Shown: piece by piece, positions 22 to 6,876 of the stretch
Numbering within the stretch: position 1 is the stretch's first letter
How the letters are laid out: the number at the start of each line of letters is the position of its first letter
NCBI GenBank assembly: GCA_021162905.1
Contig: JAGGXT010000249.1
Location: forward strand, 1-7,002
DNA: 7,002 nucleotides
Origin: Candidatus Odinarchaeota archaeon
GTDB lineage: Archaea > Asgardarchaeota > JAGGXT01
Direction: 5' to 3'
Program-made: the position numbers and the translations under genes
Notes under the pieces: model-generated
Databases searched by the model: none
Seen by the model: only the letters and a program-made list of their open reading frames with translations
Told to the model about the DNA's origin: nothing

Positions 22-2646
22 TTGTCGCAATCAACACTAGATTTTTTCTTTAATATTAAAGAAAAGGTAGAGGAAAAGAAAGAAAAAAAGTATGAAGAGA
101 TTAGTGAAATTAAGGAGAATGCAGTTAGTTTAGAGATAAGACGCTCTACTCCTAAAGATGTATTGAATTGTATTTTATTAGACGTAGGATATGATGGTAA
201 AAAAGAAAAGGCATTCGTTAAGCTGTACGATCCAATTAGGAATCGAATTTATTTTTGGTATGATAATACGGATCATCACCCTTACTGCCTAACAGATATA
301 CCCAAAGAAGAGCTAGAGAAAAATAAGAGAATAGTAGGTCATCCATCTTTCTTAAAAATCGAAGAGATTGAAAAAATAGATCTTCTGCACGACGGAAAAA
401 TAGTAAGGATGTCCAAGATATGTGCCAGAGACCCATTAGCTATAGGTGGTTCAAGCAATTCCATTAGAAATATGCTTCCAAGTGCATGGGAGGCGCACAT
501 TCCATATAGGAAATGTTACATAATGGACGCTGGAATAATACCTGGGATGATATATTCCATTAAAGATGGTGATCTTGTATTAGAAAAGCCTAATATACCA
601 AGGGTAACGATTAATGAATTATACTCTGCTTTAAAGGATGATATAAATTTATATGAAGATATTTTACAAGACTTTCTTCCTCTTTTCTTTACTCCTATTC
701 CAAAAATTAAGCGGGTTGCCATGGATATAGAAGTAGAATCGCCCCAGGCTGATGTAATTCCAGACTCCAGTGAAGCTGCCTACCATGTAATAGCTGTTGC
801 TTTTTCATCTGATGATCTGAATGAGGTTCATATTCTTCGTAGAAGCAATAAAGAAAATATAACGTGGAACCTTTTAGGAGATGTAAAGATTCACTTATAT
901 GACAATGAAAAGGATCTCATCTCAGCTGTTTTTAAAAGATTATGGGAAATTCCTATTCTTGTGACTTTTAATGGTGATAACTTTGATATGCTATATTTAT
1001 ATAATAGAGGTTTACGATTAGGTTTTTCCAGAAACAATATTCCTATCACTGTAGGAAAGGATTATACTGACCTAAAGAATGGCATACACATAGACCTATA
1101 TCCCTTCTTCCATAATAAGTCAATTCAGTCATATGCCTTTGGTAATAGTTACAAAGAAACAACGCTAGAGGCTATAACACAAGCTTTACTTAATAAGGGA
1201 AAGGTTCCTCTAAATAAACCTATTCCAGACCTCTCCGAAGAAGAATTAGCCTATTACTGCTTTACCGATGCACAAATTACATATGAACTAACGTCCTTTA
1301 ACGACGATCTTGTAATGAAGATGATAATCTTAATGATGCGCATTTCAAAATTACCCATTCTTGATATCACGCGTCAGAGCATCTCTGCCTGGATTCGAAA
1401 TATGATATACTTTGAGCATAGGAAACGAAATTATTTGATTCCAAGGCCTGAGGATATTCTCAAGGAAAAGGGACAAGTTTCAACTAAAGCGATAATTAAA
1501 GGTAAAAAGTATATGGGTGCTATTGTTGTTGAACCTATAGAAGGTGTTCATTTTAATGTTGTTGTGCTTGACTTTGCTTCACTTTATCCATCCATAATAA
1601 AACGCTGGAATTTATCATATGAAACTATACGCTGTCCTCATGAGGAGTGTAAAAGCAACATAATTCCTGAGACGTCGCACTGGGTCTGTAAAAAAAGACG
1701 TGGGATAACATCTGCCCTAGTTGGTTTTCTCAGAGATATCCGTGTAAAATGGTTCAAAATGAAAGCTAAAGATCCATCAATAAGTAAAGATGAAAGATCG
1801 ATGTATAAAGTGATTCAAGCAACCTTAAAAGTTTTCATAAATGCTACTTATGGTGTCTTCGGGAGTGAACATTTTGAATTATATTGTCCGCCAGTAGCTG
1901 AAAGTACGACGGCTTTAGGTCGTTTTTCAATTATGAAAACAAAAGAAAAGGCAGAGGAAATGGGAATTAAAGTTATATACGGTGATACTGATAGCGTTTT
2001 CCTGTATAATCCGACTCCTGAACAGGTAGAACATTTAAAAAGATGGAGCATAAACAGTCTGGGGATTGAATTGGATGTAGATAAAGTATATAGATGGGTC
2101 GCGTTATCAAATAGAAAGAAAAATTATCTTGGCGTTTTAGAGAACGGAACGATAGACGTTAAGGGCTTATTGGGTAAGAAACGTAACACTCCCGAATTTG
2201 CAAAAAAGGCGTTTTATGAAATACTTCAAGTATTGAGCAAGGTTAATAATATGGAAGATTTCGAATTGGCAAAGAAGAAAATTATAAAAATTGTGCAAGA
2301 AGCTTATCGGAAACTTGAACGTGGAGAAGTCTCTTTAGAAGACCTAGCAATTAAAGTGCAATTAACAAAGCCACTCAAGGCCTATACAAAAACAACTCCA
2401 CAGCATGTAAAAGCAGCTAGACTCTTAGAACATAAAGGTAAAAAGGTTCTCGTTGGTCAAATAATAAGCTTTGTAAAAACGACTACAAGTCCGGGGGTAA
2501 AACCAATCGAACTAGCAAAAGTAAGTGAAATAGACATCCAGAAATATAAAGAGTATTTGCAGTCAACGTTTGAGCAAGTTTTAGATGCCTTAGGAATAGA
2601 TATTGAGCAATTTGAAGGTATAACTAGTTTGAGCAGCTGGTTTTAG
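22..2646 (+). CDS. polB: Family B DNA polymerase, PolB1 (Dpo1) type, replicative
   Basis: Replicative DNA-dependent DNA polymerase with 3'-5' proofreading, acting with the PCNA clamp. The 874-residue length fits PolB1 (Sulfolobus Dpo1 is about 880). An N-terminal domain (about 40-225, DNTDHHPYCL near 81-90) precedes the exonuclease domain: Exo I MDIE (D235, E237), Exo II FNGDNFD (N317, D322), Exo III YCFTD (Y412, D416). Polymerase motifs are A LDFASLYPSII (D517), B KVFINATYG (K603, Y610) and C YGDTDS (D655, D657), then KKNY (699-702) and the thumb motif TPQHVKAA. All catalytic residues are present, so it should be active. QSTLDFFF (3-10) is a textbook PIP box; the C terminus ITSLSSWF (867-874) is a degenerate one. 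C538, C543, H553 and C556 after motif A could bind zinc. The TTG start at 22 is chosen because GAGGT (11-15) precedes it by 6 bases and it retains the PIP box. Resemblance to Dpo1 is from memory of its sequence. Confidence 0.97.
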   Translation: MSQSTLDFFFNIKEKVEEKKEKKYEEISEIKENAVSLEIRRSTPKDVLNCILLDVGYDGKKEKAFVKLYDPIRNRIYFWYDNTDHHPYCLTDIPKEELEKNKRIVGHPSFLKIEEIEKIDLLHDGKIVRMSKICARDPLAIGGSSNSIRNMLPSAWEAHIPYRKCYIMDAGIIPGMIYSIKDGDLVLEKPNIPRVTINELYSALKDDINLYEDILQDFLPLFFTPIPKIKRVAMDIEVESPQADVIPDSSEAAYHVIAVAFSSDDLNEVHILRRSNKENITWNLLGDVKIHLYDNEKDLISAVFKRLWEIPILVTFNGDNFDMLYLYNRGLRLGFSRNNIPITVGKDYTDLKNGIHIDLYPFFHNKSIQSYAFGNSYKETTLEAITQALLNKGKVPLNKPIPDLSEEELAYYCFTDAQITYELTSFNDDLVMKMIILMMRISKLPILDITRQSISAWIRNMIYFEHRKRNYLIPRPEDILKEKGQVSTKAIIKGKKYMGAIVVEPIEGVHFNVVVLDFASLYPSIIKRWNLSYETIRCPHEECKSNIIPETSHWVCKKRRGITSALVGFLRDIRVKWFKMKAKDPSISKDERSMYKVIQATLKVFINATYGVFGSEHFELYCPPVAESTTALGRFSIMKTKEKAEEMGIKVIYGDTDSVFLYNPTPEQVEHLKRWSINSLGIELDVDKVYRWVALSNRKKNYLGVLENGTIDVKGLLGKKRNTPEFAKKAFYEILQVLSKVNNMEDFELAKKKIIKIVQEAYRKLERGEVSLEDLAIKVQLTKPLKAYTKTTPQHVKAARLLEHKGKKVLVGQIISFVKTTTSPGVKPIELAKVSEIDIQKYKEYLQSTFEQVLDALGIDIEQFEGITSLSSWF

Positions 2647-2708
2647 CTCATTCAAATGCCTCGTCATCATAGTTTTTCTCAGTTCCGGAAGTACTAATCA
2701 TCGCTAAA
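2642..2708 (-). ncRNA. Candidate box C/D guide sRNA, 2'-O-methylation guide
   Basis: Read on the minus strand, about 67 nt show all box C/D elements in order: C box GCGATGA (2704-2698, one mismatch to RUGAUGA), 15-nt spacer, D' box CTGA (2682-2679), 8-nt spacer, perfect C' box ATGATGA (2670-2664), 12-nt spacer CGAGGCATTTGA (2663-2652) and D-like box ATGA (2651-2648, one mismatch). TTTAGC (2708-2703) and GCTAAA (2647-2642) flank the boxes as a perfect 6-bp terminal stem; its 3' arm overlaps the polB stop codon. By the N+5 rule the D guide would direct methylation of the third A in CAAAUGCC of 23S rRNA, next to the E. coli U1939 position. By my count from memory this equals yeast 25S A2281, methylated with snR13. 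The D' guide TTAGTACTTCCGGAA has no target I can assign. A TATA box lies about 23 bp upstream. Such RNAs work with L7Ae, Nop5 and fibrillarin. The weak C and D boxes are the main doubt. Confidence 0.68.
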
Positions 2709-2728
2709 TTACTTTTAGTATTTATGCA

Positions 2729-2741
2729 TTTATAGTTTTCT
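2729..2741 (-). promoter_or_regulatory. BRE/TATA promoter for the minus-strand C/D sRNA candidate
   Basis: On the minus strand AGAAAACTATAAA matches the archaeal BRE/TATA pattern RNWAANNTTTAWA at 12 of 13 positions. The centre of TATAAA lies about 23-25 bases upstream of the first base of the predicted terminal stem (2708), where archaeal transcription would start. No minus-strand protein gene follows, which supports an RNA gene. Confidence 0.55.
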
Positions 2742-2887: not shown

Positions 2888-4270
2888 ATGATTAGGGAGA
2901 TTCAAGCAGGTCGTTTCGAAAGGGTTGGTGCTCACAGTCACATTAGAGGTCTTGGCCTTAAAGGATTAAAGGCTCTTCCAATCGCAGATGGCTTTGTTGG
3001 GCAAGTCGAAGCTAGAGAGGCTGCCGGTATAATAGTAGAAATGGTAAAATCAGGTAAAATGGCAGGGCGTGCAATATTATTAGCAGGGCCTCCTGGTACA
3101 GGAAAAACAGCAATAGCCATAGGAATTGCCAAGGAGTTAGGCGAAGATGTTCCATTTGTAATGATCGCTGGCAGTGAAATTTATAGTGAGGAGAGAAAAA
3201 AGACTGAAATCTTGCAAGAAGCTCTCAGAAAAGCTATTGGCGTAAGGATTCATGAAATGAGAAAAATATACCAAGGCGTTGTTGATAGTCTAGATATAAA
3301 GATGACAAAGAATCCATATAATCCGTTTCAACAATTACCAGAATCTGCGACTTTAACTCTTAGAACTAAGAAGGAAAAGAAAACCTTCGAAGTAGGTCAG
3401 CAAGTTGCATTATACATGATAAATCAGAATGTCGTTGAAGGAGATGTAATTATGATAGATGCTGAGACAGGAAGAGTTACAAGGATAGGTCGTGCTGATG
3501 ATCCAAAATATAAGCAATATGAAATAGAAGCAACAAAAAGAGTTCCTATTCCGGATGGACCAATTGTAACAGAGAAAGAATTCGTGTATACATTAACTTT
3601 AGCAGACCTAGATGAAATTCAAGCAAGAAGAAGTGGAATCTTCACTATATTTAGCCTCTTTGGTGAGAGGACTGAGCGAGAAATAGATCCTGAAATTAGA
3701 AGACAAGTAGATAATGCTGTAAAAGAAATGGTCGAAGAAGGTAAAGCTGAACTAATTCCTGGAGTGCTTTTTATCGACGAATCGCATATGTTAGATATAG
3801 AAGCTTACTCTTTCTTAAACAGAGCGATGGAAAGCGAATTGGCGCCTATAATAATATTTGCTAGTAACAGAGGTATTACAAAGATACGCGGCACAGACCT
3901 AGTCAGTCCTCATGGTATGCCTCTCGATCTTCTCGATAGGCTTTTAATAATTAATACTAGGCCATACACAGAAGAGGAAATCCGAGAAATTTTGAAAATT
4001 AGAGCTAAAGAAGAGAAAGTGGAATTGGATCCAGAGGCACATGAATATCTAGCAAAAATAGGAGCTGAAACTAGTCTAAGGTATAGTGTACAGTTATTAG
4101 GACCTGCTGCAGAAATTGCTAGAAAAGCTAATGGAGGCAAAGAAGGGGAGAAGGTTAAAGTTACAAAAGAGCATATCGACATTGTTCGTAAGTTATTTGC
4201 TGATGTTAAAAGATCTGTAGGTTATGTCAAAAAGCACGAGAAAGAATTCCTAATAGCATATAGTGAGTAA
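2888..4270 (+). CDS. TIP49/RuvBL family AAA+ ATPase
   Basis: Archaeal homologue of the eukaryotic Rvb1/Rvb2 (RuvBL1/RuvBL2, pontin/reptin) ATPases, which form hexameric rings and serve chromatin remodelling and box C/D snoRNP assembly; the archaeal role is poorly known. The 460 residues match the eukaryotic length. Visible features are the N-terminal HSHIRGLGL (about 16-24), Walker A GPPGTGKT (67-74), a TIP49 insertion domain (about 122-286, OB-fold-like by family), Walker B FIDESH (D297, E298; DEVH in eukaryotes), sensor 1 ASNRG (N327), SPHGMPLDLLDR with the probable arginine finger R351, and sensor 2 SLRYSVQLL (R398). All ATPase residues are intact. The start at ATG 2888 follows GAGGTG by 6 bases. 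It has its own promoter and stands alone between polB and the DUF47 operon. The nearby candidate C/D sRNA is a suggestive neighbour given the eukaryotic snoRNP role, but no functional link is shown. Confidence 0.96.
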   Translation: MIREIQAGRFERVGAHSHIRGLGLKGLKALPIADGFVGQVEAREAAGIIVEMVKSGKMAGRAILLAGPPGTGKTAIAIGIAKELGEDVPFVMIAGSEIYSEERKKTEILQEALRKAIGVRIHEMRKIYQGVVDSLDIKMTKNPYNPFQQLPESATLTLRTKKEKKTFEVGQQVALYMINQNVVEGDVIMIDAETGRVTRIGRADDPKYKQYEIEATKRVPIPDGPIVTEKEFVYTLTLADLDEIQARRSGIFTIFSLFGERTEREIDPEIRRQVDNAVKEMVEEGKAELIPGVLFIDESHMLDIEAYSFLNRAMESELAPIIIFASNRGITKIRGTDLVSPHGMPLDLLDRLLIINTRPYTEEEIREILKIRAKEEKVELDPEAHEYLAKIGAETSLRYSVQLLGPAAEIARKANGGKEGEKVKVTKEHIDIVRKLFADVKRSVGYVKKHEKEFLIAYSE

Positions 4271-5833: not shown

Positions 5834-5863
5834 TTATTATGAAGAAATATCACGGTGCTCTTG

Positions 5864-6520
5864 ATGAATGATAAACCAGAAACGGAAAAAGTAACGACTC
5901 TCGATACAAATTCGTTCTTGGAGCAGCTCATTCTACGCATAGAAGAGGATATGCTAAAATCTGAATTAAAAGATATTGCTGAAAAAGCTAGGGAACTTGA
6001 ATTAAAGTGGAAAATAGGTGAGCTATCTTCTGAAAAAGTAAAAATTGAGCTTCTGAAACTCAATGATAGACAAGAATCTATACATCATAGACTAGAAGAT
6101 ATTCAAAAAATGAAACAGGAGACTGAAATAGAACAGTTCCTTAATGAAGTAATGTTACTAATGAATAAGATAGAGAAACTAAGTAAAATTAGATGGAAAG
6201 TTGGAATAAGTCAAAGGTTTATAGATTCTCTTAAAAGGAATCTCAAATCAAAGATAAAGGAAAATCAAGAATTACTTAAAGCCTTTAAATCAAAGTTTAA
6301 AGAAATAAAAAAGAATCTTGAGCAAAAAATAAAAAATTTAAAACTCGAGAAAGAATCCCTAAAAGCCAGCTATCTTCTGAATGAAATAAGTGAGGATGAA
6401 TATAAAAAGAGAGATAAAGAATTAAATAAGAAAATATTTATATATCAAAAAGCTCTCGAAAATTTAAAATCCTTAAAGAAACAAGTTTCTCGTGTTGAGC
6501 GATATAAGTGGCTCATATAG
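5864..6520 (+). CDS. Coiled-coil protein, unknown function
   Basis: A 218-residue, very Lys/Glu-rich, almost wholly helical protein with no signal peptide, membrane segment or cysteine. Residues about 17-105 and 117-215 look like two long coiled-coil segments, split by the less helical SKIRWKVGISQRF (107-119). Two similar short motifs occur: KIGELSSEKVKIELLKLN (50-67) and NEISEDEYKKRDKELNKK (173-190). They resemble the G-x-I-(S/T)-x-E-E-Y helix-turn pattern seen near the ends of several prokaryotic coiled-coil and SHOCT-like proteins. No enzymatic motif is seen. ATG 5864 is chosen because CGGTG lies 6 bases before it; the in-frame GTG at 5855 is part of that site. The next gene starts 11 bases after its stop, suggesting co-transcription with the Cys-rich protein. 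A CdvA-like or other filament/scaffold role crossed my mind, but no CdvA barrel domain is present, so I leave function open. Confidence 0.82.
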   Translation: MNDKPETEKVTTLDTNSFLEQLILRIEEDMLKSELKDIAEKARELELKWKIGELSSEKVKIELLKLNDRQESIHHRLEDIQKMKQETEIEQFLNEVMLLMNKIEKLSKIRWKVGISQRFIDSLKRNLKSKIKENQELLKAFKSKFKEIKKNLEQKIKNLKLEKESLKASYLLNEISEDEYKKRDKELNKKIFIYQKALENLKSLKKQVSRVERYKWLI

Positions 6521-6531
6521 GTAGGATTCTT

Positions 6532-6876
6532 ATGTCACAGAAAAAGATATTCTGTACACCAACTTGTAAGCATTTTCAATGTGCTGGAGGTCACATTTCT
6601 ATTAAATTCACTCGACAAGGAAAACGATTAGTTATGTGTAATTGGGCGGGTGATCTCTGTATAGGGTATAAATGCAAATTTGCATCTTGTAAAATAAATA
6701 AACTAATGAGCGATGGTACTTGTGCTTTACGAACACAAATTTCAAGAAAGCAAGAGCATCGCAAAAAAGATTTTGAAGAATTTGAAATTACTGAGGAATT
6801 ACCAATAGATGAACTACAAAAGAGAATAAAAAGCAAGGATCTCAAGAAGATAAAAGATTGGGATCTATACTATTAA
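6532..6876 (+). CDS. Cys-rich, probable metal-binding protein, unknown function
   Basis: A 114-residue protein with eight cysteines in its first 64 residues: C8, C12, C17, C36, C43, C48, C53 and C64, plus H14 and H21. The spacing CxxxCxHFxxC, then CNWAGDLCxGYKCxxxxC, suggests two four-cysteine sites for zinc or an iron-sulphur cluster. The C-terminal half (about 70-114) is charged and helical, rich in Lys and Glu, ending DWDLYY, and could bind a partner. No family is recognised. ATG 6532 is preferred over GTG 6508: GGTAGG (6520-6525) lies 6 bases before it, and the GTG would overlap the upstream gene. It sits 11 bases after the coiled-coil gene, so the two probably act in the same operon. It converges on a minus-strand gene 15 bases downstream. 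Confidence 0.82.
   Translation: MSQKKIFCTPTCKHFQCAGGHISIKFTRQGKRLVMCNWAGDLCIGYKCKFASCKINKLMSDGTCALRTQISRKQEHRKKDFEEFEITEELPIDELQKRIKSKDLKKIKDWDLYY

What the first reader, a model, noticed from the sequence alone, without database searches (positions are those of the whole stretch)
2642..2741. Hidden box C/D sRNA gene antisense to the polB 3' end, with its own promoter
Boxes C, D', C' and D occur in order on the minus strand with a canonical 12-nt C'-D spacer, a 6-bp terminal stem and a 12/13 BRE/TATA match placed about 23 bp upstream. These independent elements agree on the same boundaries in a stretch with no protein gene. The terminal stem uses the polB stop codon bases, so transcription of the two may interfere.
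Basis: partly seen in the sequence, partly recalled or inferred. Interest (0 to 1): 0.8.

Follow-up and report, generated by a model that had tools for sequence, protein, structure and literature searches.

The report
Ribosomal-RNA methylation guide gene in Asgard archaeon
A stretch beside the DNA polymerase gene of a probable Asgard archaeon very likely encodes a 67-base RNA that directs a chemical mark onto the large ribosomal RNA at a site also marked in yeast, plants and humans, which makes it a new member of a known kind of gene.

Summary
The minus strand of 2708-2642 reads as a complete archaeal box C/D sRNA. My reading shifts box C by 3 nt, to AUGAUUA (2701-2695). Both guides are then 12 nt, the 6-bp stem abuts a 3-nt bulge as in a kink-turn, and box C U6 faces A1 of the unusual D box AUGA.

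Chance is unlikely. One such site exists in the window; 1500 resamples gave one hit, none with a stem of 3 bp or more. In the whole window only two Rfam matches reach E<=1, both C/D models here, but below gathering scores.

The D guide (CGAGGCAUUUGA) pairs 11 nt with 23S rRNA CCAAAUGCCUUG of other archaea, predicting 2'-O-methylation of the adenosine equivalent to yeast A2281/human A3764. The guide core recurs in 117 of 400 genomes (reversed control 2 of 400), inside C/D sRNAs in the 30 loci read, and matches SNORD15's guide.

The host is probably Ca. Asgardarchaeum (PolB 99%). Still open: expression, host 23S, D' target and synteny, because I reached no Asgard genome. Interest lies in a possible Asgard counterpart of an ancient eukaryotic snoRNA. 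Otherwise ordinary.

The parts
2642..2708 (-). box C/D sRNA, predicted mature region (67 nt)
2729..2741 (-). BRE/TATA-like element AGAAAACTATAAA, TATA centre about 23 nt upstream of the sRNA 5' end
   Evidence: 2 matches in the window, 0.98 expected by chance; position fits
2703..2708 (-). terminal stem, 5' arm TTTAGC
2695..2701 (-). box C, AUGAUUA (bulge nucleotides G2702 A2701 U2700 follow the stem)
   Evidence: of three candidate registers the only one in which the 6-bp stem abuts the bulge
2683..2694 (-). D' guide GUACUUCCGGAA (12 nt), target unresolved
   Evidence: best near candidate 23S CGCCGGGAGUAAC about 32 nt upstream of the D target; 89 of 2000 shuffled guides do as well
2679..2682 (-). 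box D', CUGA
2664..2670 (-). box C', AUGAUGA
2652..2663 (-). D guide CGAGGCAUUUGA (12 nt), complementary to 23S CCAAAUGCCUUG of other archaea; fifth nucleotide upstream of box D is U2656
   Evidence: guide core found in 117 of 400 genomes
2648..2651 (-). box D, AUGA; its A1 can pair with U6 of box C
2642..2647 (-). terminal stem, 3' arm GCTAAA, antisense to the polB stop codon
22..2646 (+). polB, family B DNA polymerase; stop codon 2644-2646 lies inside the sRNA 3' arm
2888..4270 (+). TIP49/RuvB-like ATPase gene (start ATG 2888 chosen by me; the ORF opens at GTG 2879), divergent from the sRNA

Best explanation
A stand-alone archaeal box C/D sRNA gene on the minus strand, in the 241-bp gap between polB and TIP49, overlapping the last 5 bases of polB. 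The 67-nt RNA would fold into a terminal kink-turn (C/D) and an internal k-loop (C'/D'), bind L7Ae, Nop5 and fibrillarin, and use its D guide to direct 2'-O-methylation of the third A of CCAAAUGCC in the helix 68-71 region of 23S rRNA (yeast A2281, human A3764; E. coli A1938 by recalled numbering). The D' guide probably addresses a second rRNA site or is an orphan. Shown from sequence: boxes, spacings, stem, pairing potential with other archaea's 23S, recurrence of the guide in other archaeal C/D sRNAs. Inferred: transcription, RNP assembly, methylation, the target in the host's own rRNA.
For: Full box set, 12/12-nt guides, 6-bp stem in kink-turn register, and a U-A pair where the standard boxes have G-C. 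Chance controls. Only C/D models match at E<=1 in the whole window. D guide: 11 contiguous pairs (one G-U) with the conserved 23S segment in 9 of the 9 rRNAs that one search found in 12 genomes, a score reached by 1 of 2000 shuffled guides in the nearby 215 nt and 3 of 400 in one genome's 23S plus 16S. Guide core after a C-type box: 117 of 400 genomes versus 2 of 400 for the reversed pattern. In the 30 loci fetched from that search, 30 of 30 carry the same partner guide CAGAGUUA and a CUGA box, 30 of 30 have a best stem of 4-6 of 6 pairs abutting the bulge (2 with 4, 24 with 5, 4 with 6), and 29 of 30 pair the position that is U-A in the window (the parse takes the register with the best stem, which flatters it). 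The GAGGCATTTG form: 13 of 398 versus 0 of 398, 11 of the 13 with the window's guide-box spacing. Rfam's SNORD15 consensus reads GAGGCAUUUGUCUGA there. Helices 68, 69 and 71 are described as archaeal methylation hotspots (PMC4644070 passages).
Against: No Rfam model reaches its gathering score, although 14 loci with the same guide also reach none for C/D families. Box C and box D each depart from consensus by one base. No expression data. Host 23S not available, so the target rests on other archaea. D guide position 1 is unpaired. D' target unresolved. Fold energy not unusual. In the 7 genomes with a GAGGC guide whose 23S could be read, the target is CCUUG, so guide and target do not covary there. 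The genomes are related, so 117 is not 117 independent events; 283 of 400 lack the exact pattern.
Confidence: 0.92

Rival explanations
1. Chance arrangement of AT-rich intergenic sequence that happens to resemble C/D boxes.
For: Box C and box D are each one base off consensus; Rfam scores are below gathering; TATA-like motif is common.
Against: 0 of 300 shuffles (stem of 6 bp or more) and 0 of 1500 resamples (stem of 3 bp or more) give boxes plus stem; the D guide matches a guide conserved in other archaea.
Confidence: 0.03
2. A decayed C/D sRNA: once functional, no longer expressed or assembled.
For: Non-consensus box D (AUGA) and box C (AUGAUUA); D' guide without a clear target.
Against: The two box changes can form a base pair with each other. 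Among L086-L096 the same AUGA/UGAUUA combination, there in the C'/D' motif, occurs in 5 of the 5 loci with D' AUGA (closely similar loci, so perhaps one event). The D guide and stem are intact.
Confidence: 0.04
3. An antisense regulator of polB that borrows the C/D fold for stability: convergent transcription or pairing with the polB mRNA 3' end limits polymerase expression.
For: The sRNA 3' arm is complementary to the polB stop codon and last bases.
Against: Overlap with the coding region is only 5 nt. The review PMC7994747 (section 9) reports neutral or slightly negative effects on a reporter for 3'-overlapping C/D genes; whether the tested ones were antisense is not said in that text.
Confidence: 0.05

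Closest known systems
Archaeal box C/D sRNAs (dual-guide 2'-O-methylation guides)
   Same: Two box pairs, 12-nt guides, terminal stem, length of about 60-70 nt, target in the helix 68-71 hotspot, overlap with a neighbouring ORF end.
   Different: Box C/D closes with U-A instead of G-C; lies antisense to the ORF end; apparently stand-alone, while only 20% of the genes surveyed had a TATA-like motif (PMC7994747, section 9).
   Same: Same guide core in the same register next to a D-type box; C/D fold around it.
   Different: Second guide differs. Partner guides match helix 69 AACUCUGA (CAGAGUUA in 30 of 30; target recognised by eye) or helix 71 AGUUCCGGC (best site in 6 of 6 loci tested of L086-L096); the window's D' guide fits neither well. 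In L086-L096 the shared guide is the first (D') one.
Eukaryotic SNORD15 / snR13 (RF00067, RF01223)
   Same: Rfam SNORD15 consensus carries GAGGCAUUUGU-CUGA, the window GAGGCAUUUGA-AUGA; target equivalent to yeast Am2281/human Am3764 (PMC8817022 table row).
   Different: The SNORD15 model has 146 positions; it does not match the window at E<=10. In yeast snR13 the guide stands before box D' and also directs the neighbouring A (PMC8053127 passages).
Rfam sR17 (RF01144) and sR20 (RF01140)
   Same: sR17 is the best model on the window; sR20's consensus also has an AUGA D' box beside a UGAUU C' box.
   Different: sR17 score 25.6 is below gathering 36; its guides differ from the window's.

Membership tests
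Archaeal box C/D sRNA | Boxes C, D', C', D in order with about 12-nt guides | tested here: met
   box C and box D each one base off consensus
Archaeal box C/D sRNA | Terminal stem abutting a 3-nt bulge (kink-turn), closing pair kept | tested here: met
   6 of 6 pairs, box C U6 with box D A1; three-dimensional fold not tested
Archaeal box C/D sRNA | Guide complementary to rRNA with the target opposite the fifth nucleotide upstream of D or D' | tested here: met
   D guide, against other archaea's 23S; the host's own 23S not available. D' guide inconclusive
Archaeal box C/D sRNA | Guide conserved in other C/D sRNAs | tested here: met
Archaeal box C/D sRNA | Expressed 50-70 nt RNA bound by L7Ae, Nop5, fibrillarin | not testable with these tools
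   no RNA data; host genome not held
Rfam sR17 (RF01144) | Score at or above gathering (36 bits) | tested here: not met
   25.6 bits
Eukaryotic SNORD15/snR13 | Match to the family model | tested here: not met
   not among the 19 matches at E<=10
Eukaryotic SNORD15/snR13 | Same guide and same methylation site | tested here: met
   guide core identical over 10 nt; site equivalence by letters against PMC5199042 and PMC8817022 table passages, with the yeast sequence recalled. PMC3511168 numbers the yeast site Am2279, an offset of 2 in its numbering as far as I can tell
Eukaryotic SNORD15/snR13 | Common descent rather than convergence on an invariant target | not testable with these tools
   only 10 nt shared, and the target itself is nearly invariant

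The most novel reading that the evidence does not exclude
Probability: 0.18. Interest if true: 0.65.

Novelty: new member of a known kind. Interest (0 to 1): 0.4.

Why it matters
Hoeppner and Poole (PMC3511168; passages and section 7 seen) list U15/snR13 among the modification sites of snoRNAs of the last eukaryotic common ancestor. In the text I saw, they name archaeal counterparts only for other families (sR12/snR70; with weaker support SNORD60/sR36 and SNORD96/sR11). An Asgard C/D sRNA with the U15 guide core in the same register, plus the same core in 117 of 400 genomes of another archaeal class, gives a concrete candidate for testing descent against convergence. As to print: the titles and abstract openings listed by my searches (10 of 10 papers listed; 7 of 7; 8 of 295) name no survey of C/D sRNAs in Asgard archaea. 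[quoted passage not shown] No bioRxiv preprints and few subscription papers are held. At the plain level it adds an unannotated RNA gene and shows that Rfam at gathering thresholds misses this group.

Tried and rejected
Box C as GCGATGA (2704): rejected because the 6-bp stem would leave no kink-turn bulge. sR17 membership: rejected on score. D' target in 16S: no convincing or conserved site in 9 genomes. D' target in 23S: best recurrent near-site score 8.4, reached by 89 of 2000 shuffled guides, so left open; some higher scores elsewhere in 23S (up to 10.4) differ between genomes. Guide-target covariation at the CCUYG position: looked for and not found. The genomes with GAGGC guides also have CCUUG, in 7 of 7 readable 23S loci (13 genomes searched), so the host's target letter there is unknown. 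Promoter as independent proof: not accepted. polB-TIP49 synteny outside Asgard: not seen in the stretches held, so it cannot test the sRNA. Exact 30-nt and 21-letter patterns of the sRNA in viral contigs: none. RNA fold energy: uninformative. Fold search, structure prediction and covariance-model building were not used.
Full report
What is there. The evident protein genes of the window are all on the plus strand: polB (22-2646), TIP49 (from ATG 2888, my choice of start), a PhoU-divergent (DUF47) protein, a tRNA splicing endonuclease and two further proteins; the minus-strand ORFs that one search lists are 64-90 aa and lie opposite these. PolB is 99% identical over its full length to a protein named for Candidatus Asgardarchaeum, the next hits being 75% and 60-64%, so the source is very probably an Asgard archaeon of that genus (taxonomy). 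No genome is held for the window and I found no route to an Asgard genome.

Anatomy. On the minus strand, 2708 to 2642 reads UUUAGC-G-AUGAUUA-GUACUUCCGGAA-CUGA-GAAAAACU-AUGAUGA-CGAGGCAUUUGA-AUGA-GCUAAA. The obvious box C, GCGAUGA, leaves a 15-nt guide and no room for the bulge of a kink-turn. Three bases further on, AUGAUUA gives 12-nt guides on both sides and a 6-of-6 stem directly followed by the three-base bulge GAU. In that reading the two odd boxes explain each other: box C has U instead of G at position 6, box D has A instead of C at position 1, and these two bases face each other in the kink-turn (recalled geometry), so G-C has become U-A. A similar rule can be read in loci from other archaea, there in the C'/D' motif: D' AUGA goes with C' GUGAUUA in 5 of 5, GUGA with GUGAUCA in 1 of 1, and CUGA with an RUGANUGA form in 5 of 5, which keeps a G-C pair only if one base is looped out; read plainly those five do not pair (L086-L096). 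The looped-out reading is mine, and the loci are similar to each other. The Rfam sR20 consensus also shows an AUGA box with a UGAUU box.

More than chance? A box-score scan with dinucleotide shuffles expects 0.013 such sites per window and found none with a 6-bp stem in 300 shuffles. A kink-turn scan finds one site in the window, this one, and one hit in 1500 resamples, with a stem shorter than 3 bp. I defined that scan after seeing the site, so it flatters it. cmscan is independent of my choices: over both strands of the whole window at E<=1 only sR17 (0.0097) and snoPyro_CD (0.67) appear, both here. They stay below gathering, but so do the C/D sRNAs with the same guide in 14 other loci, where the 10 matches that pass are all tRNAs.

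Guide and target. The D guide pairs over 11 contiguous bases (10 Watson-Crick, one G-U, the base next to the box unpaired) with CCAAAUGCCUUG of 23S rRNA in 9 of 9 rRNAs, which found a 23S in 9 of 12 genomes. The same target letters stand in 17 of 17 loci read (23S found in 7 of 13 and 10 of 14 genomes; the two short pieces L104 and L105 were dropped). The nucleotide opposite the fifth guide base is the third A. Yeast m5C2278, Am2280, Am2281 and Gm2288 (PMC5199042 table passage) fall on the right letters of CAAAUGCCUCG (yeast letters recalled), which makes that A the equivalent of yeast A2281 and human A3764, guided there by snR13 and U15 (PMC8817022 table row; PMC8053127 passages). Helices 68, 69 and 71 are described as archaeal methylation hotspots (PMC4644070 passages); a search of that paper's main text for this particular position found nothing.

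Relatives. The pattern GATGA-N(1-9)-GGCATTTGNNTGA occurs in 117 of 400 genomes of the class of a Thermoprotei MAG; its reversed control occurs in 2 of 400. The 30 loci fetched show a C/D sRNA around it. All 30 carry CAGAGUUA in the partner guide, which matches the helix 69 loop AACUCUGA (target judged by eye), and 29 of 30 pair the position that is U-A in the window, there as G-C. In 7 of the 14 loci scanned with Rfam the sRNA lies about 40-45 nt downstream of a tRNA on the same strand. The GAGGC form, as in the window, occurs in 13 of 398 genomes of the phylum versus 0 of 398 for the control. Eleven of these 13 have the window's spacing, with the guide in first position; one more (L085) resembles the first group, and one (L084) shows no clear sRNA by eye. 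Their 23S keeps CCUUG in 7 of 7 readable cases, so there the guide makes a G-U pair and guide and target do not covary.

The second guide. GUACUUCCGGAA has no clear target. The most recurrent site is 23S CGCCGGGAGUAAC, 32 nt upstream of the D target, with 9 contiguous pairs (one G-U) from guide position 3; 89 of 2000 shuffled guides do as well within the nearby 215 nt. That is a lead only.

Promoter and context. AGAAAACUAUAAA (2741-2729) sits about 23 nt upstream of the predicted 5' end, but about one such site per window is expected by chance. The better argument for an own promoter is that no evident minus-strand gene lies in the 4.3 kb upstream, so there is no obvious precursor to be processed from. 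A review (PMC7994747; [quoted passage not shown] The arrangement is therefore within the known range, apart perhaps from the antisense orientation, which that text does not discuss. Interference with polB remains an untested idea.

Comparison with eukaryotes. Rfam's SNORD15 consensus, as printed by cmscan on locus L086, contains GAGGCAUUUGUCUGA. The window has GAGGCAUUUGAAUGA. SNORD15 also appears weakly on L050 (E=0.058) and L086 (E=0.6), but not on the window at E<=10. Ten shared bases complementary to a nearly invariant target can arise twice, so common descent is possible but not shown. Hoeppner and Poole list this family among those of the last eukaryotic common ancestor; in the passages and section 7 that I saw, no archaeal counterpart is named for it (PMC3511168).

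Verdict. A real, probably functional C/D sRNA gene, not covered by Rfam at gathering thresholds, in a probable Asgard archaeon: a new member of a known kind, with a slightly unusual but self-consistent kink-turn, and with a guide that makes a question about snoRNA ancestry testable.

Noticed in passing
L036, L039, L041, L043 (23S loci): These 23S matches are 3.7-3.8 kb long, and the sequence changes just before CUUAAGGUAGCCAAAUGCC, which looks like an intron beside the D-guide target. Introns at such conserved sites are known (recalled).
   Followed up: no
L102: The 23S of one genome is interrupted on both sides of AAGGUAGCCAAAUGCCUUGCCGGGU, so the methylation target segment stands as a tiny exon or an assembly artefact.
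   Followed up: no
L050, L051, L054, L056, L057, L073, L074: C/D sRNA with the same guide lies about 40-45 nt downstream of a tRNA on the same strand, suggesting tRNA-sRNA dicistrons.
   Followed up: partly
window 5855-6520 +: Protein with weak matches to a CdvA-like coiled-coil domain and to IPP transferase (E about 8e-5, both below the curated cut-off) in a probable Asgard archaeon.
   Followed up: no
window 6508-6876 +: Small cysteine-rich protein (122 aa ORF; its last 114 aa were scanned) with no Pfam match at E<=0.001.
   Followed up: no
L050-L068 and L070-L074, terminal stem: In this group the stem GGCYGC/GCYGCC keeps a pyrimidine-pyrimidine mismatch at its third pair in 24 of 24 copies.
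   Followed up: no
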